A DNA stretch of 64,000 bases from Mycolicibacterium moriokaense (GTDB taxonomy: Bacteria > Actinomycetota > Actinomycetes > Mycobacteriales > Mycobacteriaceae), in the NCBI RefSeq assembly GCF_010726085.1, contig NZ_AP022560.1, forward strand, positions 992,001 to 1,056,000. The letters are read 5' to 3'. Shown here in pieces: positions 6,202-52,993 of this stretch (the stretch's first letter is position 1; each line of letters opens with the position of its first letter). The notes below the pieces were generated by a model. It ran no database searches. It was not told the DNA's origin and saw nothing but the letters and a program-made list of their open reading frames with translations. The translations under genes and the position numbers were made by a program.

Positions 6202-6216
6202 TGAACCATCGTTATC
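6202..6216 (-). promoter_or_regulatory. Predicted operator, GATAACG motif copy 1
   Basis: Minus strand reads GATAACGATGGTTCA, one base away from the copy at 23970-23984. It sits in the 250-base gap upstream of the ligase/FadE operon that starts at 6064. Six further copies occur in promoter regions of this window. Binding protein unknown; inference from recurrence only. Confidence 0.55.
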
Positions 6217-6269
6217 TTTCGATCCGTGGCATGGCTGCGGGGTCGGTGGCCTCGGCGCCTTTAACCCCT

Positions 6270-6286
6270 CACCGGAATCACCGGTG
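6270..6286 (-). terminator. Weak hairpin downstream of the WS/DGAT gene
   Basis: CACCGG and CCGGTG arms (6270-6275 and 6281-6286) around a 5-base loop, about 30 bases past the stop of the acyltransferase gene on the minus strand. No T-tract follows, so this is only a possible terminator. Confidence 0.25.
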
Positions 6287-6315
6287 CGATCGGGGGGGAT
6301 AGAGCGAGGCCACGG

Positions 6316-7707
6316 CTACGCGAGTGCCAGGATCTCGTCCAGACTCTCTTGCATTGACGCCCAGAGGAACTCGAGGTCGTCGAACACCTCACCGTCGGCG
6401 TTCATCGCGATGCAACACACACCGCAATGCGTGCACATCGCCGACGTCAAAACGGTACCGGGCAGCGGGGCGAACACGAACATCCGCTCGAATCGTGCGC
6501 CTGCCATGTACCGGTCTTCGGCGATGCCCGGCCACGAACTCGTTGTGAGGACGGCGCCGCCGACGGCGCCGAGGATGGCGGCCGCGATACCTGACGGGGT
6601 CCGGTTGAGGATCGGGGTGACGGCGCCAAGGAAGCCGAGCGCGGGCTCGGATCGAACACGATCCACTCGGTCGTGCATCGCACGGATCCGTTCCGCGGGA
6701 TCCTCGATGCCCGACGGTACGAGGAAATAAGCTGCGGCGAAATCATTCCCGCCCATTGCGTCCTGCGCGGAGCGCATGGCCACGGGCATGGAAATCGGGA
6801 TGTCTTGAAGATCCTCGCCTTTGGCAGCGCAGTAGCGTCGCAGCCCACCGAGCAGCGCGCTCACGAAGGCGTCGTTCAACGAGCCCCCGGCGGCTTTGGC
6901 GGCGCGTCGGAGATCGGCGAACTCGCATTCCATGGTGCCGAACCGCCACATTCGTCGAGAGCCACCGCGCAGGACCGCGGATGGATTCTTCGGCGGTGGG
7001 CCGGCCACCCGGGCCAGCGACGACACGTAGTCTGCGGTCGTCCGAAGATTTCTGACGGCGTGGCCGAGAACCCGACCGCCGCCCAGCAGCGCCTTGGGGA
7101 CATCGGCTATCTGACGAGCGAGCTGCTGGGTGGTCACGTCGAGCGCACTATGGCGTTCAGGTGCACGCTCGGGCCGCGGCTTGTCCGGCTGATGTGCCCG
7201 ACCCACGTTCAGGACCCGCGAATGCAGCCACGCCAGGGCGAGGCCATCCATGAACACGTGATGGGAATGCATGATGTAGGCCGCGCGGCCGCCTTCGAGT
7301 CCCTCGACGAGGTAACCCTCCCAGGGCGGCCGGGACCGATCGAGCGGCGTGAGTCCGATTGTCTGGGCGAGGTCCAGCAGCTGACGGTGCGTTCCCGGGC
7401 TGGCCAACGAAACCCGCCGCAAGTGGAAGTTCAGGTCGAACGATGGGTCGTCCTCCCACATCGACGGCCCCACCGGAATCACCGGATCCACCACCCGCTG
7501 AGCGAAGCGCGGAACTATTTGGACGAACCATTCGTGCGCCGCGTAGAGCCGCTTCCAGTCGGGGACACTGTCAAGAAGCTGGAGGACGACCCCGGACCAC
7601 GCCCCTCCGGGGTGGCGGTCGGTTCGCCACATCAGTGCGTCCAACTCCGACAAGACCGGTTCGCGGCCCCAGTTGTCGAGTTCCGCCCACGACTGGTCCT
7701 CGATCAT
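6316..7707 (-). CDS. Wax ester synthase/diacylglycerol acyltransferase (WS/DGAT)
   Basis: 463-residue O-acyltransferase. The defining HHxxxDG catalytic motif is present as HHVFMDG (about residues 136-142), and the N-terminus LSELDALMWRTDRHP is the family type. It would esterify a fatty alcohol or diacylglycerol with acyl-CoA to form storage lipid at the membrane. The reading frame is open to 7776, but the ATG at 7707 has AAGGAG six bases upstream and is chosen. The LuxC-type acyl-CoA reductase at the window start and this enzyme are the two activities needed for wax esters, though they are not in one operon. Confidence 0.92.
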   Translation of the reverse strand: MIEDQSWAELDNWGREPVLSELDALMWRTDRHPGGAWSGVVLQLLDSVPDWKRLYAAHEWFVQIVPRFAQRVVDPVIPVGPSMWEDDPSFDLNFHLRRVSLASPGTHRQLLDLAQTIGLTPLDRSRPPWEGYLVEGLEGGRAAYIMHSHHVFMDGLALAWLHSRVLNVGRAHQPDKPRPERAPERHSALDVTTQQLARQIADVPKALLGGGRVLGHAVRNLRTTADYVSSLARVAGPPPKNPSAVLRGGSRRMWRFGTMECEFADLRRAAKAAGGSLNDAFVSALLGGLRRYCAAKGEDLQDIPISMPVAMRSAQDAMGGNDFAAAYFLVPSGIEDPAERIRAMHDRVDRVRSEPALGFLGAVTPILNRTPSGIAAAILGAVGGAVLTTSSWPGIAEDRYMAGARFERMFVFAPLPGTVLTSAMCTHCGVCCIAMNADGEVFDDLEFLWASMQESLDEILALA

Positions 7708-7738
7708 CCGGACTCCTTTCTCACCGTCCATCGTGTCG

Positions 7739-9642: not shown

Positions 9643-10511
9643 TCGCCACCGCTCGCCAGGATCGCCTGTCCCTGCCCGCGATACCGGCGCTCCTGTGGGT
9701 CAGCTTTCGCAGGAGAGCCTCGCGGGTAGCCGCGGTACCGGTGCGCAGCGTGGCGACAACCGGGCGGGGTGTGCTCATGGCGGCCGCGGTGCTGCGATAC
9801 GCCATCACGGACACCCTGTCGTTACGCCTCCCGTTCGGTGAACTGATCGTCCAGGCCTGGACGCTGTTCAAGGTGACCGCGACACCGGCGGTGCTCATGG
9901 CAATTCCGATCGGCGCCACCGTGTCGGTCGAAGTCTCTGGTCTTGTCAATCAGCTCGGCGCCAGCTCTCTTGCCGGCACTGCCAGTGCGGTAGGTGTGCT
10001 GCGGCAAGGGGCGCCTATCACCGCCGGCCTGTTGATGGGTGGCGCCGCCGCGTCGGCCATCGCGTCCGACCTCGGGGCCAGGGCGATTCGTGAGGAACTC
10101 GACGCGCTTCGTTCACTCGGCGTTGATCCGGTGCGGCGTCTTGTGGTGCCACGCTTTCTAGCGCTCATCCTCATCGCACCCGTGCTGTGCGTGATCATCA
10201 TCGCATCGGCCGTCGCAGCCGCTTTCATTCTCGCGGTGACTGTGAGCGACGTGACCTCCGGCAGCTTCTGGATGACCTTCGGCGCATTCGCGAAAACCGT
10301 TGACGCATGGTTCGCGATCGGCAAGACGGTCATCTTCGGCGCGATTGTCGCCGTGATTTCCTCGCTGCGTGGAATGGAGGCCAAGGGCGGCCCGCGAGGT
10401 GTTGCCGACGCAGTGAATTCATCGGTGGTACTGAATACCGTCAGCATTGTCGTCGTGAACCTCGCGATCACTCAGTTGCAGGCGATGTTCTTCCCCATGG
10501 AGGTCTCATGA
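9639..10511 (+). CDS. yrbEA: YrbE/MlaE-family ABC permease, first subunit (YrbEA)
   Basis: 290-residue integral membrane permease of a Mce lipid importer. Several hydrophobic segments are visible (for example the run around residues 170-205) and the MlaE-domain signature DLGARAIREELDALRSLGVD is present at about residues 143-162. The GTG at 9639 overlaps the leader-ORF stop; a later GTG at 9741 would give a protein closer to the usual 255 residues, so the first 34 residues may not be translated. Stop overlaps the next permease start (ATGA). Confidence 0.92.
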   Translation: MIATARQDRLSLPAIPALLWVSFRRRASRVAAVPVRSVATTGRGVLMAAAVLRYAITDTLSLRLPFGELIVQAWTLFKVTATPAVLMAIPIGATVSVEVSGLVNQLGASSLAGTASAVGVLRQGAPITAGLLMGGAAASAIASDLGARAIREELDALRSLGVDPVRRLVVPRFLALILIAPVLCVIIIASAVAAAFILAVTVSDVTSGSFWMTFGAFAKTVDAWFAIGKTVIFGAIVAVISSLRGMEAKGGPRGVADAVNSSVVLNTVSIVVVNLAITQLQAMFFPMEVS

Positions 10512-11389
10512 CGGCACCCTCTTTGGCGAACCCGGGCCGGACCGCGACGCCGTCGAAACAGTTCGCCGCTTTGGTCGCGGTGCGATCGAAAGTTGGTGCG
10601 CCGTTCACAACGGTTGGCCAGTGGGTGACGTTCATCGCACTGACGCTGTGGTTGTTGCCGGTGACCGTACGCCGGTATCGGCGGCAGACCCTCCAGGAGA
10701 TGAGCAGCCTGGCGTGGGGGCGGGGTGCCATCATCGTCGACGGCGGCGTGGTCAGTGTGCTGACAATATTGGGTGTCGCGATCGGCGCGTCGATTGCCAT
10801 CGAGGCCTTCGGGACGCTGAATCTGCTCGGCCTGGGAGCACTGTCCGGGATCGTCGGCGGTCTGGTCAACGTCCGGGAGATGGCGCCTCTGGTCGCCGGG
10901 ATCGCCTTCGCGACGCAGGCGGGTTGCCGGATGACCGCCGAGATCGGCTCGATGCGGATCTCTGACGAGATCGACGCTCTCGAAGCAATGGGCCTGCGGT
11001 CGATTCCGTTCGTGGTGGGTACCCGCCTTGTCGGCGGAATGCTCTGCGTGGTACCGGGTTTCCTACTAACGTTGGTAGTCAGCTTCTATGTTTCCAACAC
11101 CGTGATCCGGGTTTTCCACGATCAGCCGGGCGGAACCTACCAGCACTACTTCGTGCAGTTTCTGCCGGCGACGGACATCGCGTACTCGCTTCTCAAAGCC
11201 AGTGTCTTCTGCGCCGCCGTCATTCTGATTCATTGCTACTACGGATATTTCGCATCGGGCGGACCGGCCGGTGTCGGGGCCGCGTCCGGGCGCGCCGTTC
11301 GGGCAAGCCTCGTGGTGATGATGGTGTTGAATGTGATGCTCACAATCGCGTTGTGGGGACTGAAGCCGGAATTCGTTTTCAAGGGATAG
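10508..11389 (+). CDS. yrbEB: YrbE/MlaE-family ABC permease, second subunit (YrbEB)
   Basis: 293-residue second permease of the importer; the two YrbE proteins are expected to form the membrane channel with an unlinked MceG-type ATPase, which is not in this window. Signature segment EIGSMRISDEIDALEAMGLR at about residues 147-166, flanked by long hydrophobic helices, and a C-terminal GGPAGVGAASGRAVRASLV typical of the family. The ATG at 10508 overlaps the stop of the upstream gene (ATGA); the frame is open further upstream but only within yrbEA. Confidence 0.92.
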   Translation: MTAPSLANPGRTATPSKQFAALVAVRSKVGAPFTTVGQWVTFIALTLWLLPVTVRRYRRQTLQEMSSLAWGRGAIIVDGGVVSVLTILGVAIGASIAIEAFGTLNLLGLGALSGIVGGLVNVREMAPLVAGIAFATQAGCRMTAEIGSMRISDEIDALEAMGLRSIPFVVGTRLVGGMLCVVPGFLLTLVVSFYVSNTVIRVFHDQPGGTYQHYFVQFLPATDIAYSLLKASVFCAAVILIHCYYGYFASGGPAGVGAASGRAVRASLVVMMVLNVMLTIALWGLKPEFVFKG

Positions 11390-12466
11390 GTGACTACGGT
11401 GTTGTTGCGAATGTCTCCGGAGGCCGAGGCGCGGGCGTTCACCATCGTTGGTGTCGCGGTGGCGCTCTGCGTCGCCGTGGTAGGCCTACTCGTCGTGCTG
11501 GAGCCATTCAACCGCCGTCCAGTCGACCAGGTCTCCATGGTGATCGACACACCATATGTCGGCCAAGGGGTTTCGGTGGGAACGGCGATGATGCTGCACG
11601 GGGTCAAAGTGGGACAGGTTTCGGGGATATCGAGTCGGCCCAGCGGTGGTGTGCGGCTCGGTGTCGACTTCCAGGCCGGACCCACCACCGGCCTGACCGA
11701 CGCGATGGGTATCGACTTCCGGCCCGCGAACTACTTCGGTGTGACTGCCATCAATGTGATTCCGACCGCCGGCGGCCAGGTGATCAAGGACGGAATGACC
11801 ATCGATCTGGTGCCTCGCGGGAACTTCACGCTGGAAACGTTGCTGTCCGATCTCAAAGACCTGACCGGAGGGGTGATCACGACGCAGCTGATCGAGGTGG
11901 TCGAGCGCACCACGCGATACACCGATGCCCTCAACCCGCTGTTCGAAACCATGGTGATCGCCGCCGACGCGATTACCGAGGTCCAAACGGTCTCTACTGC
12001 ACAACTTTTGACCAACGCTACGGGGGTAAGTGTGGCACTCCCCGGGTTCGTGGAGGCGGCCAGCAGCGCCGTCGACGACTTCGCCCATTCCGGGCTGACG
12101 CGGTTCTTGGCGTCCGGGCCGGGCGGCGCCGTTGCCGGTGAGCCCATCTCCGAGGAGTTCTGGCAGAGCAGACATGTCGGGACGCTCGAGATGGTCACCA
12201 CCTCGTTCTTCGCGAAGGTCGGCACACTGGTGTCGAAACACGTCGAGGATCTCCTGCCGGCGGTTCAGATGGTGCAGACGCTCAGCGACACCGTGCCCGG
12301 CGTCGTCACGCCGCCCGGCGTCGCTGACAGCCTGGTGGAACTACGGACGCGACTGGAAAAGCTCTACGGCGGGACGCCCGAGCAACGCGCCTTACAAGTG
12401 CACATCGTCCTAGACAACATTCCCGGTGTGGCGGCGCCGCTCGCGGCTATGGGAGTTCCGCAGTGA
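11390..12466 (+). CDS. mceA: Mce family protein A
   Basis: 358-residue substrate-binding component of the importer. One N-terminal membrane anchor (about residues 16-37), then the MCE/MlaD domain (about 45-125, VSVGTAMMLHGVKVGQVSGI) and a helical C-terminal region predicted to form the periplasmic tunnel. GTG start directly after the yrbEB stop, with AAGGGATAG as ribosome site within the previous stop region. Shorter than the roughly 400-450 residues of well-known mycobacterial MceA proteins. Confidence 0.92.
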   Translation: MTTVLLRMSPEAEARAFTIVGVAVALCVAVVGLLVVLEPFNRRPVDQVSMVIDTPYVGQGVSVGTAMMLHGVKVGQVSGISSRPSGGVRLGVDFQAGPTTGLTDAMGIDFRPANYFGVTAINVIPTAGGQVIKDGMTIDLVPRGNFTLETLLSDLKDLTGGVITTQLIEVVERTTRYTDALNPLFETMVIAADAITEVQTVSTAQLLTNATGVSVALPGFVEAASSAVDDFAHSGLTRFLASGPGGAVAGEPISEEFWQSRHVGTLEMVTTSFFAKVGTLVSKHVEDLLPAVQMVQTLSDTVPGVVTPPGVADSLVELRTRLEKLYGGTPEQRALQVHIVLDNIPGVAAPLAAMGVPQ

Positions 12467-13464
12467 AGCCGTGGGGAGCGTTGTGGAGATTCGCCGTGGC
12501 CTCGGTCGTGGGGGTCCTGCTGTTCATCTTGATCGCAAATGTCCTGCGGCAACCGGTTGCCGCCGAGACACGTTCGTACACAGCACAATTCACTGATGTT
12601 GCCGGCTTGCACCTCGACGCCGACGTGCGCGTGCGAGGGGTGCGGGTCGGCAAGGTCAAGTCGATGGAGCTGGTGCGCAAGGCAGGCCAGAGCCTGGCGA
12701 CCGTCGAGTTCAGCCTCGACAAGCAGTACGCGGTGGTGCCGGCGACGCGGCTGGCCATCAAGTATCAGGCGTTGACCGGGCTTCGTTATCTCGACATCGT
12801 CGATCCCGCCGAGCAGGCCCCGGAACACGATGTGGTGACTGAGGTACCGCTGAGCATGACGCAGCCCTCCTTCGACATCACCAGGTTGTTCAACGGGCTC
12901 CAGCCGGTTCTCGCGACGTTGAGTCCCGAAGATATCGACACCTTCACCGACAACGCCGCGACGCTGCTCGCCGGAGACGGCAGTGGATTGGGGCCGATGC
13001 TCGAGAGTATTCATACCCTGACCGAGTTCGTCTCAGATCGGCAACAGGTCGTCGCAACCTTGATGGGAAATCTCAACGCGATCGCGGACACGTTCGGGGG
13101 ACACTCGAGGGACTTCGTTCAAATGTTGGATTGGCTGAACCGGCCGTTGGACGCGGCGATCCGAATCATTGACGAGTTCCGGAAGTCTGAACTGTACGGA
13201 CCCGGGTTCACCAGCCCCATAGTGCGGCTCTTGCACAATGTGGGGCTTCAACCGGGTGCCGACATCGCCGACGGGCTCGACCGGGCCGTCACCGTATTCG
13301 ACGACTACAGCGATGCGTTCAAGAGGGTGCCGGTCATGTGGGACAACCTCGAGCCGGCGATGCCACCGGATGTCCCACTACCGTGCGCGCGCGGCCGCGC
13401 TCAATTACCCGAGTCGCTGGACGTTCTGCTGAATGGGCAAAGGGTGGTCTTGTGCAATCGATGA
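12463..13464 (+). CDS. mceB: Mce family protein B
   Basis: 333 residues: N-terminal membrane helix (about 9-27), MCE domain around residues 35-115 containing LDADVRVRGVRVGKVKSME, then a helical region and a short C-terminus ending with two cysteines (CARG and VVLCNR). The GTG start overlaps the mceA stop (GTGA). Component of the hetero-hexameric Mce assembly by family analogy. Confidence 0.92.
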   Translation: MKPWGALWRFAVASVVGVLLFILIANVLRQPVAAETRSYTAQFTDVAGLHLDADVRVRGVRVGKVKSMELVRKAGQSLATVEFSLDKQYAVVPATRLAIKYQALTGLRYLDIVDPAEQAPEHDVVTEVPLSMTQPSFDITRLFNGLQPVLATLSPEDIDTFTDNAATLLAGDGSGLGPMLESIHTLTEFVSDRQQVVATLMGNLNAIADTFGGHSRDFVQMLDWLNRPLDAAIRIIDEFRKSELYGPGFTSPIVRLLHNVGLQPGADIADGLDRAVTVFDDYSDAFKRVPVMWDNLEPAMPPDVPLPCARGRAQLPESLDVLLNGQRVVLCNR

Positions 13465-14420
13465 ATTTCCTGCGCAATCCGACATTGTGGGGTGTGGGCG
13501 CCCTCGTGATGGTCGTCGTGCTGGCCCTGACGGCTACCGTTCTCTACGTCAGCCCGCCGGGACAAAAGACCGTGGCCTTCTACACCGATGACGCGGCCTC
13601 GATCCGCCCGGGCGACACTGTGCGGATTGCGGGCATCACGGTCGGCAAGGTGGAGGACCTGTCGGTCGAGCCGAACCAGGTACGGGTCCGCGCGAAGGTT
13701 GACAACGAAGCATTCGTCGGAGACAAGTCGCATGTCGAAGTCCGGATGCTCACGGTGGTCGGCGGATACTACGTGAATCTGATTTCACTGGGAGACGATC
13801 CGCTCGGCTCGAATACTATCCCGGTGGAACACGTGACAATGCCGTACAGCCTCGTACGTACGTTGACCGACGCCACGAAGATCACCGAACGGGTAGATCC
13901 CAAGCCGATCAACCAGTCACTGGACGAACTGCAACAGGGCCTCACCGGCGCGAACGTGAGCACACTTTCGGCGCTGCTTGACGCCGGAAACAGCCTCACG
14001 GAAACGATCGACAGGCAGCGCGGACAGATCTCGTCGATTCTCGACGTCTCCGACGAATACATTGAGGGACTGGCCAACTACAAGGATGGGCTTCGTCAGC
14101 TCGCCCTCAAGGCTGCCCTCGTCGAACAGATACTGGTGCTGTACGGCAAGGGTTTTGGTGGTGCCTTGATGGGCATCGGCAAGGTCGTCGAATCTCTCTC
14201 CCCGGTTGGCGCATTCTATTTGGACCATCGTGACGAGTTTCTCGCCAAGATCCGCGAATGGCAGGACCGGGTACGAAGGTGGGTGGACAACAACAGTCGA
14301 ATCGTTCCGAGACTGCGTCGGATACGAGATAAGATCGACCGCGTCCTGGATGCGCAGAACGCACGCCCGGAGCTGCTCGCCACCGACGTATGCATACCGA
14401 TGCCGGGGAGCCCATGCTGA
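13452..14420 (+). CDS. mceC: Mce family protein C
   Basis: About 322 residues. Hydrophobic anchor near the N-terminus (WGVGALVMVVVLALTATVLY), then the MCE domain with RPGDTVRIAGITVGKVEDL (about residues 50-68) and a helical C-terminal half. Two starts are possible: GTG at 13452, five bases after AGGGTGG, and ATG at 13461, which makes the classic ATGA overlap with mceB. The first is used because of the ribosome site; both give nearly the same protein. Confidence 0.9.
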   Translation: MQSMNFLRNPTLWGVGALVMVVVLALTATVLYVSPPGQKTVAFYTDDAASIRPGDTVRIAGITVGKVEDLSVEPNQVRVRAKVDNEAFVGDKSHVEVRMLTVVGGYYVNLISLGDDPLGSNTIPVEHVTMPYSLVRTLTDATKITERVDPKPINQSLDELQQGLTGANVSTLSALLDAGNSLTETIDRQRGQISSILDVSDEYIEGLANYKDGLRQLALKAALVEQILVLYGKGFGGALMGIGKVVESLSPVGAFYLDHRDEFLAKIREWQDRVRRWVDNNSRIVPRLRRIRDKIDRVLDAQNARPELLATDVCIPMPGSPC

Positions 14421-20375: not shown

Positions 20376-20395
20376 CGGTCTGCCGGGTCAGACCG
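20376..20395. terminator. Hairpin between convergent genes (mce operon and TetR)
   Basis: CGGTCTG (20376-20382) and CAGACCG (20389-20395) with a 6-base loop. It lies 28 bases after the last mce-operon stop and overlaps the 3' end of the opposing TetR gene, so it may end transcription in both directions. There is no T-tract, which is common in mycobacteria. Confidence 0.45.
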
Positions 20396-21020
20396 GGCGT
20401 GTTCCGACCGCCTTGCGTCCGGATTTGCGTTGGGTGGGTCGAGCCTGTTGCGCGCCGCCGTCGAGGTGCTGCAAGCTCGCCAACACCATGCCGGTGAGCA
20501 TCTCGTCGAGTCCCGAAGTGTGCAGTGCCTGAACTGGCCAAAACGCAACAGAGTCCATCAAACCGTGGGTGGCGTGGACGGCGGCAACGAGTTTCGCGCG
20601 GGAGTGGCCTGGATAGCAGGCATCCAGACATCGCGTCCAGCGGTCGATGTACCGGTTGATCCGCACCCTCAGCCTCGACCGAAACTCCGCAGGGATGGAA
20701 TTACGTTCTCTGGTCCACACGCTCATCAACTCGCGATCCGCGAGCACTTGCTGGACGTGTCCATGCACGAGATGATGGAGTTCCTGGTGGGGGTCGTCGA
20801 ACTCCCCGCCCGTCGCTATCAGCACCCGGTCGATCGCCTCGTCGAGCAGGGTGAGCAGGATCTCGTCCTTGCCGCTGAAATACCGGTAGATTGCCGGGCC
20901 GGACACCCCCGCGCGTTCGCCGATGAGATCTACTCCCACACTCCCGAATCCGCGTTCGTGAAAGAGATGCATCGCGGTACGCAGGATGCGTTCGGAACGC
21001 TCCTTGCGGGTCGAGGACAT
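20388..21020 (-). CDS. TetR family transcriptional regulator
   Basis: 210 residues. HTH region SERILRTAMHLFHERGFGSV to SGPAIYRYFSGKDEIL (about residues 8-55), followed by a KstR2/FadR-like ligand domain with YIDRWTRCLDACYP. The start at 21020 is the first ATG matching the family N-terminus; the frame is open to 21131. It is divergent from the amine-oxidase-like gene at 21250, and a GATAACG-type operator sits between them (21218-21232), so it is a reasonable candidate for the regulator of that motif. That link is inference. The 188-residue TetR at 55736 shares its general pattern. Confidence 0.87.
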   Translation of the reverse strand: MSSTRKERSERILRTAMHLFHERGFGSVGVDLIGERAGVSGPAIYRYFSGKDEILLTLLDEAIDRVLIATGGEFDDPHQELHHLVHGHVQQVLADRELMSVWTRERNSIPAEFRSRLRVRINRYIDRWTRCLDACYPGHSRAKLVAAVHATHGLMDSVAFWPVQALHTSGLDEMLTGMVLASLQHLDGGAQQARPTQRKSGRKAVGTRPV

Positions 21021-21217
21021 CGCACCACGGTACCGCACCGGGTTAGACCGACGCGGTTCGCTGCGCGAGGACAATCGCAGGGTGACGGAGCCAGTGAGGC
21101 CGGGTACGACGAGCCAGGAGCGGTCCGCCATATCGCCGCACCCGACCGTAGCGGAACGGTGGATATTTAGCGAGGCGGTAACAACAGCCTCGAAAACATA
21201 AGTTTTGGTGCCGGTTG

Positions 21218-21232
21218 TGAACGATCGCTAAT
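21218..21232 (-). promoter_or_regulatory. Predicted operator, GATAACG motif copy 2
   Basis: Minus strand reads ATTAGCGATCGTTCA. It is 18 bases before the ATG of the flavoprotein at 21250 and about 200 bases from the divergent TetR start. Confidence 0.5.
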
Positions 21233-21249
21233 CATCGTAGGTTATCACC

Positions 21250-22557
21250 ATGGTGCGGCGGGCAGCGGTCGTCGGCGCGGGGTTGAGCGGGTTGACCGCT
21301 GGCTATCGACTCCAGCAGGCCGGGTGGCACGTTGATGTATTCGAGTCTGGTGACGTGGTGGGCGGCCGTGTTCAAACTGTCCGCTCGCACGGTTACGCCA
21401 TCGATACCGGAGCCTCCGCGCTGGGGTCGACCTATCGCAGCTACATCGCACTGGCCACCGAGTTGGGGCTCGAATTGCGGCCAACCGCACCATATATCGG
21501 TATTCGACGGTCCGGGACCACCCACTTTCTGGACATGCGCCACGCGGTCCGATCGGGGGTGACGACGCAGCTGCTGTCGCGCGGCGCGAAGATGCGGGTG
21601 CCGCGCCTGGCTGTCGACGTCGCACTGGCTAAAGCCCGCGGCTGGTTGGACTACAGCGATATGGGTAAGGCGGCGCCGCTGGACACCCAGAGCGTGCGCG
21701 ACTACGCGGTGCGAGTGTTGAACGCCGAGGTCGATAGCTACTTGTGCGAGCCGATCGTGCGCACGATGCTCATCGCCGACACGGACAAGGTCTCCAAGGT
21801 TGAATTGTTCTCCGGAATCGCCAACATCTTCGCGGCCAAGGTCCTTTCGGTCGTCGGCGGACAGGGCCGCGTGCCGGAGACATTGGCCGAGCGGCTCGAT
21901 GTGCGACTACGCGCGCCCGTTACCGAAGTCCGGCGCACTCCGCGCGGGGTGGAGGTGACCTGTCAGGGGACCACCTCGGTCTATGACGGATGCGTCGTGT
22001 CCTGCCCGCTGCCGCAGGCCTTCGACATCTGTGTCGACGACCGGGAGGCGCTCGGGCCGCTGCGGAGTGTGCTCGGCTACACGCAGTGCGTAAGCGTAGC
22101 GGTGGGGACCTCGCGGCCGCCGGATTGCCCGGCCGGCACGGTGCTGTTCCCTTCGGTCGAGGACGCCGATATCGCGCTGATGTTCCTCGACCACAACAAG
22201 GCGCGCGACCGGGCCCCGTCCGGTCACGGCCTGCTGAGCTGTCTGTGGGAAGCCGGCGCGTCGGAGCGGTCGATCGACGCGCCCGACGACGCGCTGGTGG
22301 AGCGCACACTGGCAACGGTGTTCGAGGTGTTTCCGGAATTGCGCGGCACAGTCGATTTCACGCACGTCACGCGTTGGAGGCAGGCGTTGCCGTTGACGCG
22401 CATCGGCGCCTATCAGGAGATCGGACGTCTCGACGCGGCGCTCGACCGGCGCTCGCTCGTACAGTACGCGGCTGATTTCATGTCGGCCGCCGGGCAGAAC
22501 ACCGCGGTGGAGTTCGGCGGCCGCGCGGCCAGTAACCTGATCGCGCAAGCGGTCTGA
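21250..22557 (+). CDS. FAD-dependent amine-oxidase/desaturase-like protein
   Basis: 435 residues. The N-terminal Rossmann dinucleotide motif is GAGLSGLTAGYRLQQAGW (about residues 8-25), followed by the second FAD contact VVGGRVQTVRSHGYAIDTGA, and a C-terminal flavin-binding region EFGGRAASNLI. This layout is that of the flavin amine oxidase/protoporphyrinogen oxidase/phytoene desaturase superfamily. Neighbours (carotenoid oxygenase, SDRs) favour an isoprenoid substrate over an amine, but this is inference. Start ATG has only a weak AGG upstream. Confidence 0.8.
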   Translation: MVRRAAVVGAGLSGLTAGYRLQQAGWHVDVFESGDVVGGRVQTVRSHGYAIDTGASALGSTYRSYIALATELGLELRPTAPYIGIRRSGTTHFLDMRHAVRSGVTTQLLSRGAKMRVPRLAVDVALAKARGWLDYSDMGKAAPLDTQSVRDYAVRVLNAEVDSYLCEPIVRTMLIADTDKVSKVELFSGIANIFAAKVLSVVGGQGRVPETLAERLDVRLRAPVTEVRRTPRGVEVTCQGTTSVYDGCVVSCPLPQAFDICVDDREALGPLRSVLGYTQCVSVAVGTSRPPDCPAGTVLFPSVEDADIALMFLDHNKARDRAPSGHGLLSCLWEAGASERSIDAPDDALVERTLATVFEVFPELRGTVDFTHVTRWRQALPLTRIGAYQEIGRLDAALDRRSLVQYAADFMSAAGQNTAVEFGGRAASNLIAQAV

Positions 22558-23502: not shown

Positions 23503-23922
23503 TCAGGTAGCGGGCTCCGAAATCTGCCCGAGCAGACCGACAAAGTCGACATAGATGTGCGACACGTCGAATCTCCCGTCCGAGTCCACGTGCAGTATGT
23601 GGCAGGCCGAGATGTTGAGCGATTTGCCGGTGGGCGGGACCGGCCCGGTCGGCAGGGACAGCGGGCCACTGTGCACCGCGGTAACAGCCAACTCCGCGGC
23701 CACACCCCCGTGGCCCTCGACGTAGGCGACGATGCGGTGCTTTCGATCGGCCAGCGATTGCTGGCCGCCGGCCAGGAACTTCTGCACCGCGGCGCGCCCG
23801 GTCTGTGGCACACCGCCCCAGATCCAGTCCACGTCCTCGCCGAGGAACTCCACCGCGGCGGCGAACTCGCTGGTGTCGATGGCCGCGTAGAAACGCTCGA
23901 GGTTGGCACGGTACCGGCTCAT
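23503..23922 (-). CDS. SnoaL-like / NTF2-fold protein
   Basis: 139 residues with the pattern of the SnoaL-like polyketide-cyclase/ketosteroid-isomerase-type fold: an N-terminal helix NLERFYAAIDTSEFAAAVEFL, then VDWIWGG and a late strand LNISACHILHVDSDGRFDVSHIY. Such small cones act as isomerases, cyclases or hydratases of lipids, or as unknown-function proteins. A GATAACG operator with a TATGAT -10 hexamer lies 50 bases upstream. Confidence 0.75.
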   Translation of the reverse strand: MSRYRANLERFYAAIDTSEFAAAVEFLGEDVDWIWGGVPQTGRAAVQKFLAGGQQSLADRKHRIVAYVEGHGGVAAELAVTAVHSGPLSLPTGPVPPTGKSLNISACHILHVDSDGRFDVSHIYVDFVGLLGQISEPAT

Positions 23923-23969
23923 CGGCGCTGCTCTCCATTTCCCCGACCGCGGTGGTCGGCCCGCTGGCC

Positions 23970-23987
23970 TGAACGATCGTTATCATA
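23970..23987 (-). promoter_or_regulatory. Predicted promoter and GATAACG operator copy 3
   Basis: Minus strand: TATGAT (23982-23987, -10-like) running into GATAACGATCGTTCA (23970-23984). The operator would cover the transcription start of the SnoaL-like gene (start 23922), an arrangement fitting a repressor. Confidence 0.55.
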
Positions 23988-24082: not shown

Positions 24083-25609
24083 TCAGACGGCCACGCCGCT
24101 GCCCGCGGACTTGCGGAAGTCCATCCAGTGGCCGTGCGGTGTCCAACCCAGGCTGAAGGGCAGTTCGATCTTGCAGATGGGTCCGGCGGTGATGTCGTCG
24201 GTGTCGAAGATCTGGAACTCGCCCTTGCGTTCCCCCCACCAGGCGACCGGCACGATGATGTAGCCGTCACCCTCCGGGGAGTCGATGGTGCGCGGAGCGA
24301 AGGAAGCCTCCATCACCGCGGCCAGCTGACCGCTGTCGCGTATCTGGTAGACCTCCTCGGTGAGTTTGTCCACATCGTTGCGGATCAGGCTGTCCATCCG
24401 CATCCCGCGCCGCTTGGGCTGGCCGCCGATCTGGAACCCGTATCGGTGTCCCTTCCCGTAGTAGCGCTGGTCGACCTTGCTGATCTCCGACGGCAGGTCC
24501 GAGATCTGCTCGGCGGTGGTGACGCCCGTGGTCAGGTTGACCGTCCAACGACCCAGGTAGCTCGCGGCGTTGCTGAAGAACAGAGCCGCCTGGTCGCCTT
24601 CGTTGAAGTTGTTCTCCATCGGGAAAGGCGGTTCCTGAAAGACCGGAGCGTCGAGGATGAGTTGGTCGCCGACCACGTTGGCCGTCATGGTGTGCATGAC
24701 GTACTGCGCTGGCAGGTCGGTCTTGATCCACCGCACCGGTCCATCGGCCAGGTTATACCGTGGGATCAGCGCGATGGTGATCGGCAGATCGGTTTCCCAG
24801 CCGAAGATGGCCAGGCCCTTGGCGTTGCGTTCGCGGTCGACGATGAACGGCTGGAACGGCATCACCACCCATTCCGGGGTGAGCCAGATGTCGTGCGCCA
24901 CGGTGTTGTACGGCGCATCCCACAGGTCGCGGGATTCGACGGTGCCGTCGGGGTGGACGTACTTCATCGTGACGTACGGAGCGATGTCGCTGTAGGACCA
25001 GCCGTAGAGGATCCCGGTGTCCTCGTCCCACTTGGGATGTGCGCAGAATGTGCCGTCGCCGTAGCACACCTGCTCGTGCGGTCCGCGGGACAACGCCGGC
25101 GCCCAGTCGACAACGCCCTTGGTCTCCAGGGTGATGGGGTCGATGGCCATCGGGGGGCCGCCGAGCTCCCCGGAGGCCACCAGTTGTCCGGCGTGCGGGA
25201 AGATGTTGATGCTACTGGTGCTCTGCGGGGTGTGCGCATTCTCCGGGGTGCGGTTGACCTCGCCGTAGCCGTAGTCGCGGTAGTCGCCGAAGCCGCCGTC
25301 GGCGTACTCGAACATACTGCGGCCGTGTTTGTCCTCCAGCAGGTACTTCGGCGTGCGGACCCAGCGGTTGCGGAAGTCCGCGCGGCCGTTCTCGAACACC
25401 AGCCCCTGGACCATGCCATCCATCGCCAGTAGCGGTGTACCCCCCTGTAGGGCGGGTCGCTTCCAGCACGGTCCGGTGCGGTAGATCCCACCGGCAAGGT
25501 CCTTGGGAATCTCGCCGTGGGTCACGATGCACTCCTCGACCGTCGCCTCGAACCTCATCGGACGGAACGGGCCTTTGGTGGTTACCGTTTCTGGGATCGA
25601 GTAGCTCAT
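24083..25609 (-). CDS. Carotenoid oxygenase family dioxygenase, no. 1
   Basis: 508-residue beta-propeller non-heme iron oxygenase (carotenoid/lignostilbene cleavage family, RPE65-like). Iron-ligand histidine contexts are visible: FCAHPKWDEDTG, VAHDIWLTPEW, YVMHTMTAN and, near the C-terminus, GWTPHGHWMDF. The family cleaves a C=C bond of apocarotenoids, stilbenes or similar to two aldehydes. ATG at 25609 follows GTGAGGAA; an in-frame TTG at 25621 is possible. It is closely similar to the gene at 53050-54543. The promoter upstream carries a GATAACG operator. Confidence 0.9.
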   Translation of the reverse strand: MSYSIPETVTTKGPFRPMRFEATVEECIVTHGEIPKDLAGGIYRTGPCWKRPALQGGTPLLAMDGMVQGLVFENGRADFRNRWVRTPKYLLEDKHGRSMFEYADGGFGDYRDYGYGEVNRTPENAHTPQSTSSINIFPHAGQLVASGELGGPPMAIDPITLETKGVVDWAPALSRGPHEQVCYGDGTFCAHPKWDEDTGILYGWSYSDIAPYVTMKYVHPDGTVESRDLWDAPYNTVAHDIWLTPEWVVMPFQPFIVDRERNAKGLAIFGWETDLPITIALIPRYNLADGPVRWIKTDLPAQYVMHTMTANVVGDQLILDAPVFQEPPFPMENNFNEGDQAALFFSNAASYLGRWTVNLTTGVTTAEQISDLPSEISKVDQRYYGKGHRYGFQIGGQPKRRGMRMDSLIRNDVDKLTEEVYQIRDSGQLAAVMEASFAPRTIDSPEGDGYIIVPVAWWGERKGEFQIFDTDDITAGPICKIELPFSLGWTPHGHWMDFRKSAGSGVAV

Positions 25610-25667: not shown

Positions 25668-25707
25668 AGAGTAGTGTGCTATCGACATTCTGTAAACGAT
25701 CGCTCAC
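25668..25707 (-). promoter_or_regulatory. Predicted promoter and GATAACG operator copy 4
   Basis: Minus strand: TTTACA (25691-25696), 17-base spacer, TACTCT (25668-25673), a good -35/-10 pair for the carotenoid oxygenase. The operator GTGAGCGATCGTTTA (25693-25707) overlaps the -35. Confidence 0.55.
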
Positions 25708-25709
25708 AT

Positions 25710-26049
25710 GAAAATTGTCGGCGAGAACGCACCGATCGGCGTCTCGACGGTGGGAAACATTCATCTGATCTCCCTGCCAGTTGCCATCAGATAGGGGATC
25801 AAACAGGGATTGCACGGTGTTGCAGACGGGCGCGCGCTCATCGGGGGCCGGGCAGCAGTGAAGCAGTCGGAAGCGTCGGTGCCGAACGATCGTTTACAGG
25901 ACTCGGACGGCTGTGCCGCGAACGCAGACCCCAGGTTCTCAGGGAAACCGACAGGCCCCGCCCGGGGAATGACCACCATCCGCGCACGATGGTGTGTCGT
26001 GCGGCTAGAGCGCACCGTCGCCGCGCCCCAATTGAAGTCGTGCGCGACG
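25710..26049. other. Gene-free stretch with a stranded GATAACG operator copy
   Basis: No gene can be supported here. At 25882-25896 the plus strand reads CCGAACGATCGTTTA followed by CAG, matching the copies in front of both carotenoid oxygenases. Nothing intact lies downstream on the plus strand, only IS remnants, so the gene it served was probably lost. Confidence 0.45.
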
Positions 26050-26851: not shown

Positions 26852-27331
26852 CTAGTCCGGTTCGCCACGCGAAACGTTGGAACCGCCGGCGATCATGGTG
26901 CCTTGGCTTGTGGCGCAACGATTCCCGTAGCGGTCCTCGACGATCACCTCGATGAACTTGGTGCGTCGGCCCCCGCCGAGTGGCACCGCACGGAAGGTGA
27001 TCGGCGCCAGAGCGGGGCGATGATATTGAATGTGCAACGATCCGGTGGCCGGCAGCATGCCCTGCTGGCTCACGCGCAGCGTCATCGCCCCCATGACCTG
27101 GTCCGCGGCGGCGACGACGATGCCGCCGTTGACGGCTCCGTTCGGGTTCGGAGTCAGTGCTGGTCGATCCATGATGAACAGGGCCGATGCAGCCGTGAAC
27201 TCGACGCACCGTAGGCCGAGATCTCGGCAGAACGGTAACGAGTTGGCCCACGCCACCCAGTCGCCGGAATCGTGGTCCTCCGGGTACCACCACACGGCAT
27301 TGCCGGCGGCTGGCCCAGCGGTCGGCGTCAT
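26852..27331 (-). CDS. PaaI-like hotdog-fold thioesterase
   Basis: 159 residues. Hotdog-fold pattern: NPNGAVNGGIVVAAADQVMG (helix with the conserved NGG..AA.AD segment), then LHIQYHRPALAPI and EVIVEDRYGNRCATSQGTM. Hydrolyses acyl-CoA thioesters, often to free CoA during degradation of aromatic or branched acids. A GTG at 27355, one base into the operator copy at 27355-27369, could serve as a leaderless start and add eight residues. Divergent from the SDR at 27499. Confidence 0.8.
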   Translation of the reverse strand: MTPTAGPAAGNAVWWYPEDHDSGDWVAWANSLPFCRDLGLRCVEFTAASALFIMDRPALTPNPNGAVNGGIVVAAADQVMGAMTLRVSQQGMLPATGSLHIQYHRPALAPITFRAVPLGGGRRTKFIEVIVEDRYGNRCATSQGTMIAGGSNVSRGEPD

Positions 27332-27354
27332 GGCCTCGGAGTCTACCCCGGGCA

Positions 27355-27369
27355 CAAACGATCGTTATC
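27355..27369 (-). promoter_or_regulatory. Predicted operator, GATAACG motif copy 5
   Basis: Minus strand reads GATAACGATCGTTTG. It lies between the thioesterase (minus, 27331) and the mycofactocin-type SDR (plus, 27499) and could serve both. Confidence 0.55.
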
Positions 27370-27498
27370 GCGACTCCCGAGTCGATGTGGTCGTTGACAC
27401 ACGCACCCAGCATGGTTAATTATGAGATCAATTGCCTTAAAAAGAAGCCACGCGATGTGCTGCTGGCCATTGCCAACAAGGAAGTTAGGAGTGCTGCT

Positions 27499-28329
27499 AT
27501 GGGTTTGGCAGACGGGAAAGTCGCCTTCATCTCAGGTGTCGCACGGGGGCAGGGCCGCTCGCACGCGGTTCGGCTCGCCGAAGAGGGCGCCGACATTATC
27601 GGATTCGACATCTGCGCTGACGATCCGGCTGTCGAGTATCCGCTGGCCACTCAGGCGGATCTGGACGAAACCGCGGAGCTGATCGGCAAGTTCGGGCGCA
27701 AGGCGCTGCTGAGCGTCGCGGACGTGCGTGATTATGACGCCGTCAAGAAGGTCGTCGACGACGGCGTGGCGGAGTTGGGCCGCTTGGACATCGTGTTGGC
27801 CAACGCCGGCGTCATGGCCATCACCGGGCAGCACCGTCTCCAGCGCGCGGCCTGGGACGTCGGCATCGACGTGATGCTCAACGGTGTCTACAACACCGTC
27901 GAAGCGGCGATCCCGCATGTGCGCGCCGGCGGCAGGGGCGGGTCTATCGTCATCACCAGCTCGACCGCGGGACTCACGGGTGGACTGTCCGATGGGTCCC
28001 CGGGGATACAGGGCTACATTGCTGCCAAGCACGGTGTCGTGGGGCTCATGCGGGGCTGGGCCAATGTGCTTGCCAAGGAAGGGATCCGGGTCAATACCGT
28101 GCACCCGACGGGCGTCAACTCGCCGATGATCGCCAACGAGGCATTCGCGCGCTTCGTCCAGGAGTACCCCGAGATCGCGGGCATCCTGCAGAACCCCTTG
28201 CCGGTGCCCAACGGCCTGTTGGAGCCCGAGGACATCACGAACTCGATCATCCACCTGATCTCCGACGCCGGCCAGTACATCACCGGGACGACCTTCCGCG
28301 TCGACGCAGGGTTCTCCAGCAGAGCCTGA
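27499..28329 (+). CDS. Mycofactocin-coupled SDR family oxidoreductase
   Basis: 276-residue short-chain dehydrogenase. Cofactor motif GVARGQGRSHAVRLAEEGAD (about residues 13-32) with the ARGQGR form typical of the mycofactocin-coupled SDR subgroup; the catalytic Ser region is VITSSTAGLTGG and the Tyr-Lys motif is YIAAKHG. These enzymes hold a non-exchangeable nicotinamide and pass electrons to mycofactocin. ATG 27499 follows TTAGGAG; the frame is open from 27385. Starts a run of beta-oxidation genes; probably oxidises a hydroxyl of the substrate. Confidence 0.85.
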   Translation: MGLADGKVAFISGVARGQGRSHAVRLAEEGADIIGFDICADDPAVEYPLATQADLDETAELIGKFGRKALLSVADVRDYDAVKKVVDDGVAELGRLDIVLANAGVMAITGQHRLQRAAWDVGIDVMLNGVYNTVEAAIPHVRAGGRGGSIVITSSTAGLTGGLSDGSPGIQGYIAAKHGVVGLMRGWANVLAKEGIRVNTVHPTGVNSPMIANEAFARFVQEYPEIAGILQNPLPVPNGLLEPEDITNSIIHLISDAGQYITGTTFRVDAGFSSRA

Positions 28330-51273: not shown

Positions 51274-51275
51274 CG

Positions 51276-51470: not shown

Positions 51471-51474
51471 GAAG

Positions 51475-52716
51475 TCACGCACCCGTGATGGTGATCGGGA
51501 GCTCGTACACGCCGCGTGAGTATGCGTCGCGAATGTAGCTGATATCGCCGGCGGGCCGGATGTCCTTGGTGCGCTGCAATAGTTCCTCGAGCAGGATCTT
51601 CATCTCCAATGATGCGACGTGCTTACCGAGGCACTGGTGCGGACCACGGCCGAAACTGACGTGCGGGTTCTTCTCTCGGGACAGGTCGAAGGTGTCGGGG
51701 TCGTCGAAGGCCCGTTCGTCGAAGTTGCCCGCGGCGAACATCATCAGCACCTTGTCGCCCTCTTTGATCTCCTGGCCGTGGAATTCGTGGTCGGCCGTGG
51801 CGGTGCGCAGCAGATGGGTGAACGGCGTTGCGATGCGGACGATCTCTTGGATCGCCGTGCCCGGAATGTCATTGGCGTGCTCCCGCAGCCAGGCCATCTG
51901 GTCCGGGTTGCGCATGAGTTCGTGCATGCCGTGCGACAGCGCTGTGCGCGTGCTCTCCGCCGCGCCGGCGGCCAGCAACGCCACATTGCCTTGCAACTCG
52001 TCTTGTGAAATGACGTCCGAGCCAGCCTGCACCAGCTGGGTGATCACGTCGTCGGCGGGTTCGCGACGTTTGAGGTCGCCCAGCTCCAACGCGTAGTCGA
52101 AAATCGCCATGACAGCGGTGAATACATGCTCGAACGACGGGGTGATCCGGGTGTCGAAGGGCGCCGCGAATGTGTCGACCCATTCAAAGAACTTCGGCCT
52201 GTCCGCGGGAGGAACGCCGAGCACGTCGCCGAGCGCCTCCATGGGCATCGCGTGACCGATGTCGGTGACGAAGTTGAACGTGCCCTTCTCCAGAGCGGCG
52301 TCAACGATGTTGACGGCGTACTCGCGGAACTTCTCTTCGAGCCTGCGAACCATCGCCGGGTTGAACGCCTTGCTCATCACGCCACGCTGTTCACGATGCT
52401 TGGCGCCTTCAGTGGTCAGCATCGCCGGCTTACCGCCCATCACGGCGTCGAACGGGGTGATCTTCCACATGTTCACCCCACCCCGAGCAGTCGAGTACAG
52501 CTCGGCGTTGCGGTCCACAGCCCAGATATCGGCGTTGCGGCTGATCACCCAGGCGCGCTCCACCAGCATCGGGTCATCGAACTCGTAGAGATAGCAGGGC
52601 TCTTCATCGCGCAAGTACTTGTACTGATCCAGGGGCAAGCCGAAGGTCGTCGGGTCTCCGTTGGCATAGGTATCGGAGTCCAGCACGCGGATGTCGGGAC
52701 GGCTGCTCACTGTCAT
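51475..52716 (-). CDS. Cytochrome P450
   Basis: 413 residues. Heme loop FGRGPHQCLGKHVASLEMK, EIVR pair, I-helix LAAGAAESTRTALSHG. Paralogue of the P450 at 38995-40245 throughout its length. ATG 52716 with AGGAGG eight bases upstream (frame open to 52767). First gene of the P450, ferredoxin, ALDH, FadD, racemase operon. Upstream lies a TGAGACG-type 17-bp operator (52811-52827). Confidence 0.92.
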   Translation of the reverse strand: MTVSSRPDIRVLDSDTYANGDPTTFGLPLDQYKYLRDEEPCYLYEFDDPMLVERAWVISRNADIWAVDRNAELYSTARGGVNMWKITPFDAVMGGKPAMLTTEGAKHREQRGVMSKAFNPAMVRRLEEKFREYAVNIVDAALEKGTFNFVTDIGHAMPMEALGDVLGVPPADRPKFFEWVDTFAAPFDTRITPSFEHVFTAVMAIFDYALELGDLKRREPADDVITQLVQAGSDVISQDELQGNVALLAAGAAESTRTALSHGMHELMRNPDQMAWLREHANDIPGTAIQEIVRIATPFTHLLRTATADHEFHGQEIKEGDKVLMMFAAGNFDERAFDDPDTFDLSREKNPHVSFGRGPHQCLGKHVASLEMKILLEELLQRTKDIRPAGDISYIRDAYSRGVYELPITITGA

Positions 52717-52810
52717 GTCGGGTCCTCCTGGATGTCGACCTTGTGGTGGAACTCGGAACCGGACCACCGTTGGGAGTACGTCCTTCGTTCGGGCGGTTCC
52801 GGAATCTTTA

Positions 52811-52827
52811 TGAGTCGCTGAATCTCA
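52811..52827 (-). promoter_or_regulatory. Predicted operator, TGAGACG motif before the P450 operon
   Basis: TGAGTCG-CTG-AATCTCA, same 7-3-7 layout as the perfect site at 46652-46668 with one mismatch in the left arm and two in the right. It lies 95 bases upstream of the P450 ATG. Confidence 0.5.
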
Positions 52828-52963
52828 ATTATCGGATCGCTGGCTGCCAGTGTCAAGCGTCACATTGGGCGAGAGAATAGCTGGGAGCTCGGAGACTCGG
52901 CCTTTGCGTCCCTGCTGGGCCGACTCTCGACAGTCACCGCCAACTCGGTGGATGCATGCCGGG

Positions 52964-52993
52964 TTCGACTAAACGATAACGTTCGTTTACAGT
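52964..52993 (+). promoter_or_regulatory. Predicted promoter and GATAACG operator copy 7
   Basis: TTCGAC (52964-52969), 18 bases, TACAGT (52988-52993), with the operator GATAACGTTCGTTTA at 52975-52989 between them. Inside is an AAACGA/TCGTTT inverted repeat (52971-52976, 52983-52988). Leads to carotenoid oxygenase no. 2. Confidence 0.55.

What the first reader, a model, noticed from the sequence alone, without database searches (positions are those of the whole stretch)
6202..52993. A 15-bp element, GATAACGATCGTTYA, recurs seven times in promoter regions
Copies: 6202-6216 (GATAACGATGGTTCA, minus), 21218-21232 (ATTAGCGATCGTTCA, minus), 23970-23984 (GATAACGATCGTTCA, minus), 25693-25707 (GTGAGCGATCGTTTA, minus), 25882-25896 (CCGAACGATCGTTTA, plus), 27355-27369 (GATAACGATCGTTTG, minus), 52975-52989 (GATAACGTTCGTTTA, plus). 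All lie between genes, with a palindromic AACGATCGTT core. They precede a FadD/FadE operon, an amine-oxidase-like flavoprotein, a SnoaL-like gene, both carotenoid oxygenases, and the thioesterase/SDR pair. In three cases the element overlaps a plausible -35/-10 pair. This reads as one repressor regulon joining both carotenoid oxygenase operons. TetRs at 20388 and 55736 are the best candidates by position and similarity.
Basis: seen in the sequence. Interest (0 to 1): 0.85.

Follow-up and report, generated by a model that had tools for sequence, protein, structure and literature searches.

The report
Repressor operator of a catabolic gene cluster
The repeated 15-base element is real: it is most of an 18-base palindromic switch, probably bound by one of two sister TetR repressors, that appears to control a large uncharacterised degradation gene cluster in mycobacteria and other actinobacteria; it is a new example of a known kind of gene regulation.

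Summary
All seven copies exist where stated and exceed chance. Comparison with relatives shows the element is part of an 18-bp palindrome, TGTnAACGATCGTTnACA. The exact core AACGATCGTT occurs four times in the 6.23-Mb genome, all within 47 kb (three in the window). In 864 kb from six genomes, chosen around such cores, 105 sites score at least 14 bits (15 expected from a Markov model); 89 of 105 are intergenic, where intergenic DNA is 12.6%. The palindrome lies before the same genes in relatives, including both carotenoid-oxygenase-family genes, and overlaps promoters: its TTnACA end is placed as a -35 box, or it ends 7-8 nt before a -10. Each of 16 loci holding a relative of TetR 55736, in Mycobacterium and seven other genera, has a site; 33 loci with only partial matches are not enriched. 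The characterised relative BkaR (Fad35R) has a published operator of the same 16-bp geometry. Best reading: operators of an autoregulated TetR repressor, most likely the 55736 type, with paralogue 20388 as regulon member and possible second binder. The oxygenases are nearest lignostilbene dioxygenases; the substrate is unknown. Binding, ligand and expression are untested.

The parts
6200..6217 (.). operator (17.5 bits), upstream of the FadD-FadE-FadE-Ech operon (6091-1369, minus)
   Evidence: FadD orthologues in G131, G018 and G042 have a site at d53, d55 and d127
21216..21233 (.). operator (19.5 bits) between divergent TetR 20388 (minus) and the flavin amine-oxidase-like gene 21250 (plus)
   Evidence: strong site also before the TetR-20388 orthologues of G042 and G018, weaker ones (15.2 and 12.7 bits) at the start of those of G044 and G131
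23968..23985 (.). operator (22.7 bits) 55 bp upstream of the SnoaL-like gene 23503-23922 (minus)
   Evidence: exact core
25691..25708 (.). operator (23.6 bits), proximal site of oxygenase gene 1; its TTTACA end is spaced as a -35 (N17, TACTCT)
   Evidence: present in all five genomes aligned, weakest in G044 (13.6 bits)
25881..25898 (.). operator (19.8 bits), distal site of oxygenase gene 1
   Evidence: a distal site at d255-287 also in G131, G042, G018 and G044
27353..27370 (.). operator (21.0 bits) between divergent thioesterase (minus) and SDR (plus); 7 nt before a TAGACT -10-like box for the thioesterase
52974..52991 (.). operator (23.3 bits) 67 bp upstream of oxygenase 2 - ACAD - TetR 55736, and divergent to P450 51475
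20388..21020 (-). TetR-A, 210 aa; paralogue of TetR-B; regulon member and possible second binder
55736..56302 (+). TetR-B, 188 aa; most likely repressor binding the operator
24083..25609 (-). RPE65/lignostilbene-dioxygenase-like oxygenase 1
53050..54543 (+). RPE65/lignostilbene-dioxygenase-like oxygenase 2
54544..55692 (+). acyl-CoA dehydrogenase between oxygenase 2 and TetR-B
4490..6091 (-). FadD (AMP-binding) heading the operon
21250..22557 (+). flavin amine-oxidase/desaturase-like enzyme
23503..23922 (-). SnoaL-like protein
26852..27355 (-). 4HBT thioesterase (ATG start probably 27331)
27499..28329 (+). SDR heading the SDR-SDR-Ech-Ech-FadE-FadE run

Best explanation
The element is the operator of a TetR-family repressor. 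The full site is an 18-bp palindrome, TGTnAACGATCGTTnACA, the size expected for a TetR dimer. Its TTnACA ends can double as -35 boxes, or the site ends 7-8 nt before the -10, so a bound dimer would block RNA polymerase. Most likely binder: TetR 55736 (TetR-B type), encoded in the oxygenase 2 operon it would repress (autoregulation). Its paralogue TetR 20388 (TetR-A) has the site before its own gene, so it is at least a regulon member and may also bind. A catabolic intermediate, plausibly an acyl-CoA, would release the repressor and switch on oxygenase, P450 and beta-oxidation genes for an unidentified hydrophobic substrate. Shown in silico: the sites, their conservation, promoter geometry and association with TetR-B-type genes. 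Inferred: binding, repression, ligand and substrate.
For: Excess over chance. Core 4 times in 6.23 Mb, all within 47 kb; reversed control 0. 7 of 17 genome places with up to 3 mismatches to the 18-mer lie in 50 kb; control 1 per strand. 864 kb from six genomes: 105 sites against 15.0 (Markov), 89 of 105 intergenic. Sites before orthologous genes; promoter islands conserved. -10-like TANNNT 17/18 nt after the site in 16 of 145 site-gene directions, and 7/8 nt after in 15 of 145; null 3.1 each, 0 of 2000 randomisations as high. The six of 148 genomes with a TetR-B match are the six with oxygenases of 67% identity or more. 16 of 16 loci of TetR-B relatives have a site (38 sites, null 4.3); 33 partial-match loci have 7, null 6.0. 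BkaR/Fad35R, the nearest solved single-domain relative, has the published core GTTA(N)T(N4)A(N)TAAC; my footprint gave GTTARTNNNNAYTAAC at 30 of 30 of its loci within 4 mismatches, against 5 of 99 control stretches.
Against: No binding or expression data. TetR 22667 co-occurs in the same six genomes (plus G026) and lies near 9 of the 16 named loci. The matrix was trained on the six genomes, whose stretches were chosen around cores. The 16 loci were fetched with TetR-B, so TetR-B is there by construction; many of the 33 control loci are not actinobacterial, so they are an imperfect control. The Streptomyces and Pseudonocardia regulators are about as close to TetR-A as to TetR-B. The promoter spacings were chosen after seeing the profile, and orthologous promoters are not independent; only two of the seven window sites show a -10 in those registers. 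Exact 16-mers also occur, 31 in all, in 25 of 142 genomes without a TetR-B match, and G147 has two cores 46 bp apart.
Confidence: 0.82

Rival explanations
1. The operator is bound by a different regulator of the cluster, chiefly TetR 22667 (paralogue 59538), and TetR-A/B are only neighbours.
For: Orthologues (60-63%) in the same six genomes and homologues near 9 of 16 named loci.
Against: 7 of 16 named loci have a site but no 22667 homologue in the held DNA. G026 has a 22667 orthologue, no TetR-A/B match and no exact 16-mer. Sites lie about 100-170 bp upstream of the TetR-B relatives of Protofrankia, Amycolatopsis and Streptomyces. The operator geometry matches that of BkaR, a relative of TetR-A/B.
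Confidence: 0.09
2. TetR-A and TetR-B both bind, as competing homodimers or a heterodimer, giving two-ligand control like a split Mce3R.
For: 38% identical with near-identical recognition helices; both have Mce3R as best PDB hit by total score; both genes lie under the operator; some relatives outside the genus are about equally close to both.
Against: Each scores higher per domain against single-domain BkaR/Fad35R than against either Mce3R half. G031 keeps sites with no TetR-A match. Mce3R binds an asymmetric operator, per PMC11667970 (abstract and passages), whereas this one is a palindrome.
Confidence: 0.3
3. A repeat family, a HIP1-like iterated palindrome, or chance matches in AT-rich intergenic DNA.
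For: CGATCG is a common kind of iterated palindrome (recalled).
Against: Only 4 exact cores in 6.23 Mb; unrelated flanks in the window; conservation at orthologous promoters.
Confidence: 0.02

Closest known systems
BkaR / Fad35R (Rv2506, MSMEG_4718) and its operator
   Same: Nearest solved single-domain relative of both TetRs. BkaR, called Fad35R by others, is an autoregulatory TetR that binds as a dimer to a 16-bp palindrome GTTA(N)T(N4)A(N)TAAC (PMC3920632, abstract and passages): same length and geometry as GTnAAC-N4-GTTnAC.
   Different: Half-site has AAC instead of A(A/G)T; genes differ (branched-chain keto-acid operon against this cluster). 30 BkaR loci hold 3 sites of 14 bits or more in 103 kb, so the operators are distinct.
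KstR and KstR2 cholesterol regulons
   Same: TetR repressors of actinobacterial catabolic genes with CoA-thioester effectors (PMC8700777 passages).
   Different: Operators differ: KstR AAC-N2-GTT and KstR2 CAAG-N2-CTTG (both recalled) against AAC-N4-GTT here. KstR matches TetR-A only over the DNA-binding domain.
Mce3R
   Same: TetR regulator of lipid genes in mycobacteria; best PDB match by total score.
   Different: Double-TetR chain on a 25-bp asymmetric operator (PMC11667970 abstract and passages); here two single-domain proteins and a palindrome.
Genomic island MmGI-1 of M. massiliense
   Same: Island with an mce operon, beta-oxidation genes, P450, 'beta-carotene ketolase' and several TetRs; some proteins nearest M. 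rhodesiae or M. triplex (PMC4263727 passages).
   Different: No operator described in the passages read; its DNA was not examined here.
Lignostilbene dioxygenases (LSD, NOV1)
   Same: Nearest solved relatives of both oxygenases; top NCBIfam model, below cut-off.
   Different: The stilbene-site lysine of NOV1 (role recalled) is not kept in the alignment of oxygenase 2 with NOV1 or of oxygenase 1 with LSD, though a gap lies beside it, so the substrate may differ.

Membership tests
TetR-family operator/regulon | short palindrome at promoters, repeated before regulated genes | tested here: met
TetR-family operator/regulon | regulator gene with TetR_N domain under the same operator | tested here: met
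   PF00440 in both; sites upstream
TetR-family operator/regulon | purified protein binds, ligand releases it | not testable with these tools
   no bench data
BkaR/Fad35R operator | 16-bp palindrome with N4 centre and GTnA outer half-site | tested here: met
   G at -3 in 42 of 56 symmetrised half-sites of exact-core sites; T favoured at -2 in the matrix; BkaR core
BkaR/Fad35R operator | base T at the sixth half-site position (GTTANT) | tested here: not met
   C here; intergenic sites within 1 mismatch in the clusters: 40 of C type, 2 of T type
KstR operator | AAC-N2-GTT (recalled) | tested here: not met
   spacing is N4 by construction in the 28 exact-core sites, and seen in the window sites
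Mce3R-like double TetR | two TetR units in one chain, asymmetric 25-bp operator | tested here: not met
   188 and 210 aa proteins with one TetR_N match each, palindromic site
SACE_7040 family regulator (NF050111) | score above the curated cut-off of 250 bits | tested here: not met
   115.8 and 96.5 bits, best NCBIfam hit for both
lignostilbene dioxygenase (NF053778) | score above the curated cut-off of 800 bits | tested here: not met
   249.8 and 276.9 bits

The most novel reading that the evidence does not exclude
Two co-inherited paralogous repressors (TetR-A and TetR-B) read the same BkaR-type palindrome and regulate each other's genes. They form a two-input switch over an undescribed actinobacterial catabolic pathway in which lignostilbene-dioxygenase-like enzymes cleave an alkene that is not a known stilbene, within a regulon spread over about 80-250 kb.
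Probability: 0.3. Interest if true: 0.68.

Novelty: new member of a known kind. Interest (0 to 1): 0.5.

Why it matters
It gives a testable operator, a prime repressor candidate and a gene list for a large catabolic cluster whose substrate is unknown. Regulon membership can delimit the pathway genes, and a reporter with this operator could be used to screen for the inducer; for the comparable cholesterol repressors KstR and KstR2 the effectors are known. It also suggests that BkaR-type repressors use one 16-bp geometry with a changed half-site base.

Tried and rejected

Split Mce3R: both TetRs hit Mce3R first by total score, but each fits single-domain BkaR/Fad35R better per domain; not adopted, though a heterodimer is not excluded.

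HIP1-like repeat or mobile repeat: rejected by rarity and unrelated flanks. KstR-type operator: wrong spacing. A T-type (BkaR-like) operator set for TetR-A: 2 intergenic candidates within 1 mismatch in 864 kb, so no support.

Gene missing between 25.9 and 26.85 kb: in G131 and G044 a MarR-like gene (identified from its sequence, not by a family search) is divergent from oxygenase 1; the G131 protein gave no tblastn hit in window 25001-28000.

Third oxygenase at 4.947 Mb: no site of 12 bits or more in 20 kb. Eight other whole-genome places, in nine loci, were looked at: 4727825 (19.6 bits, intergenic), 677401 (17.2, coding), 497732 (16.4, intergenic); the other five scored 15.1 or less. The remaining places listed outside the cluster were not examined.

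Alignments that failed to help: the w71387, w4490 and w20388 upstream blocks were misaligned by the aligner or by wrong start calls; only the oxygenase 1 and SDR blocks were used. The first oxygenase 1 alignment held one sequence through a script fault and was redone.

The BkaR test word was picked from high-scoring hits in those same loci, so the 30 of 30 is partly circular; the published operator is the independent check.

Literature: AACGATCGTT occurs in 11 papers of the held library, none on this topic by title (listing only). Oxygenase plus TetR plus mycobacteria listed two papers: MmGI-1 (passages read) and a review of carotenoid cleavage oxygenases (listing only). Lignostilbene/TetR/regulon/actinobacteria matched 708 papers on at least three of four terms, of which I saw 12 titles, none on this regulon. 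I have no wider basis for calling it unpublished.

Gene calls and later are my own simple codon-usage caller, not a published gene finder; start sites are approximate. An earlier count said 13 of 68 core places (1 mismatch) lie in 989.8-1063.3 kb; recounted it is 11 of 68.
Full report
WHERE IT IS. The window is bases 992001-1056000 of a single-contig genome of 6,225,779 bases. Relatives drawn by the tool as 'same genus' include two whose contig lengths equal those of Mycolicibacterium vinylchloridicum (297,291; G042 and L150) and Mycobacterium pinniadriaticum (324,380; G018 and L151), so it is a Mycobacterium in the wide sense (inference).

THE OBSERVATION. With up to 3 mismatches the 15-mer gives 10 strand-matches against a shuffle mean of 1.66, largest 5 of 100 shuffles. 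The core alone with up to 1 mismatch gives 8 places against 1.95, and 1 of 100 shuffles reaches 8. The exact core AACGATCGTT is found four times in the whole genome, at 1015972, 1017885, 1019357 and 1063125, that is, within 47 kb; the reversed control pattern is not found. Within 1 mismatch the core has 68 places, control 17; 11 of the 68 lie between 989.8 and 1063.3 kb. With up to 2 mismatches to TGAACGATCGTTATC there are 8 places, 5 of them between 998 and 1063 kb. With up to 3 mismatches to the full palindrome there are 17 places, 7 of them between 1013 and 1063 kb.

THE TRUE UNIT. I fetched 760 kb in five relatives, in stretches chosen around exact cores or TetR matches, 40 kb flanking the window (L035 and L036), and used the window. 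The 28 exact-core sites in these show flanking symmetry that was not part of the selection: G at -3 in 42 of 56 symmetrised half-sites, C or T at -4 in 47 of 56. An iterated symmetric matrix gives TGTnAACGATCGTTnACA. At 14 bits or more there are 105 sites in 864 kb against 15.0 in order-3 Markov sequence, and 89 of 105 are intergenic where intergenic DNA is 12.6%. The matrix was trained on these stretches; the independent test is below.

THE GENES. In the window the operator precedes FadD-FadE-FadE-Ech, TetR 20388 and a flavin amine-oxidase-like gene, a SnoaL-like gene, oxygenase 1 (twice), a thioesterase and an SDR operon, and the run oxygenase 2 - acyl-CoA dehydrogenase - TetR 55736. Outside the window three sites lie between a divergent pair, an F420-dependent LLM oxidoreductase and a weakly phosphotransferase-like gene. 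The same genes carry sites in relatives: oxygenase 1 has a proximal site (d90-93) and a distal site (d255-287) in each of the four relatives that have it (proximal 13.6 bits in G044), and thioesterase/SDR, FadD, acyl-CoA dehydrogenases, oxygenase 2 and LLM genes also have sites. A third, 56% identical oxygenase of this genome at 4.947 Mb has no site of 12 bits or more in 20 kb.

PROMOTER GEOMETRY. I took all 145 site-to-gene directions from intergenic sites of 14 bits or more. A -10-like TANNNT starts 17 or 18 nt after the operator in 16 of them and 7 or 8 nt after in 15; the null is 3.1 for each, and 0 of 2000 randomisations reach either. These spacings were picked from the profile, although 17-18 is the textbook spacing, and orthologous promoters are counted more than once. 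In the first class the operator's own TTnACA-like end is the -35; at oxygenase 1 this reads TTTACA-N17-TACTCT here, with TAGCAT or TAACAT in the relatives, and by eye it is the most conserved block of the upstream region. In the second class the operator ends 7-8 nt before the -10. Both suggest steric block by a bound dimer (inference).

WHICH REGULATOR. Of 148 genomes of the genus, TetR-B (55736) relatives at 71-73% identity are in five besides our own, and TetR-A (20388) at 69-74% in four of those five. These six genomes are also the ones with oxygenases of 67% identity or more. Clustering of exact cores was looked at in 12 genomes. In the six, cores in the cluster region or on its contig are 4 of 4 (G000), 7 of 7 (G131), 9 of 12 (G044), 3 of 4 (G018), 5 of 8 (G042) and 2 of 5 (G031). 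Six genomes with 60-64% oxygenases but no TetR-A/B match have 1-3 cores each, and none within 1 mismatch in the 4.5 kb around the oxygenase, though G147 has two cores 46 bp apart on another contig. The exact 16-mer GNNAACGATCGTTNNC occurs 20 times in the six and 31 times, in 25 genomes, among the other 142; the reversed control is found in 7 genomes. A separate collection gave 16 TetR-B relatives matched over at least 163 of 188 residues (L146-L161) and 33 partial matches, mostly of the DNA-binding domain. All 16 loci have a site of 15 bits or more (38 sites, null 4.3); the 33 others have 7 (null 6.0); many of the 33 are not actinobacterial. Leaving out L150 and L151, which are training genomes, 14 of 14 loci have 33 sites. 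Seven of the 16 are from Aeromicrobium, Protofrankia, Nocardia, Sciscionella, Amycolatopsis, Streptomyces and Pseudonocardia, with 45-62% identity to TetR-B and often the same neighbours. In Protofrankia, Amycolatopsis and Streptomyces a site lies about 100-170 bp upstream of the TetR gene.

AGAINST. TetR 22667 has orthologues in the same six genomes (plus G026) and homologues near 9 of the 16 loci. It is disfavoured because 7 loci have sites without it in the held DNA and because G026 has it without the exact 16-mer, but this is not proof. The Streptomyces and Pseudonocardia regulators are about as close to TetR-A as to TetR-B by score, although their recognition helices have the TetR-B serine. 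For TetR-A, G031 keeps sites without a TetR-A match, so TetR-A is not needed; its helix has Pro where TetR-B has Ser, as in BkaR, so its own specificity is open.

CLOSEST KNOWN. Both TetRs match Mce3R best by total score but single-domain Fad35R best per domain. As a positive control I looked near Fad35R-like genes in 30 loci and found GTTARTNNNNAYTAAC within 4 mismatches of my test word in 30 of 30 (control stretches: 5 of 99 at 4, none better), with a pair about 25 bp apart in 21 of 30. The word was taken from those loci. Afterwards I read that Fad35R is another name for BkaR and that its operator, shown by EMSA, is GTTA(N)T(N4)A(N)TAAC, present twice and bound as a dimer (PMC3920632, abstract and passages). 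The present operator has the same 16-bp geometry with AAC for A(A/G)T. This makes a TetR-A/B type protein the expected binder and the find a new member of a known kind.

THE PATHWAY. The oxygenases are nearest to lignostilbene dioxygenases and below the curated cut-off of that family. In the alignments the NOV1 lysine that I recall as contacting the stilbene hydroxyl is not kept (for oxygenase 1 the alignment is with LSD only). With P450s, ferredoxin, FMO, CoA-transferase, acyl-CoA dehydrogenases, enoyl-CoA hydratases and MCE-type genes (label recalled from gene order and first residues) this looks like a catabolic cluster for a hydrophobic compound that I cannot name.

VERDICT. Observation confirmed; interpretation supported in silico. 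What remains is binding, ligand and substrate.

Noticed in passing
window 58233-59200 (minus): The thiolase gene looks broken: a 396-aa orthologue aligns over residues 1-239 and 352-396 in different frames, with the stretch between mostly unmatched.
   Followed up: partly
G000:C1:4727825-4727842 (L241): A strong distal site (19.6 bits) 55 bp before a CoA-transferase-like gene, divergent to an acyl-CoA-synthetase-like gene; a possible regulon member 3.7 Mb away (names from sequence starts, no family search).
   Followed up: partly
L195-L224 (30 BkaR/Fad35R loci): Palindrome GTTARTNNNNAYTAAC upstream of the matched gene in 30 loci, as a pair about 25 bp apart in 21; matches the published BkaR operator.
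   Followed up: yes
G131:C1:4048865-4049386 and G044:C1:4500313-4500846: A MarR-like gene divergent from oxygenase 1 in two relatives, not found in window 25001-28000; possible second-layer regulator.
   Followed up: no
window 25900-26850: About 0.95 kb without a convincing gene between oxygenase 1's upstream region and the thioesterase.
   Followed up: partly
window 9777-17453: An MCE-type transport operon (two YrbE-like plus six Mce-like genes, label recalled from order and sequence) inside the regulon span but with no operator of 12 bits or more before it.
   Followed up: no
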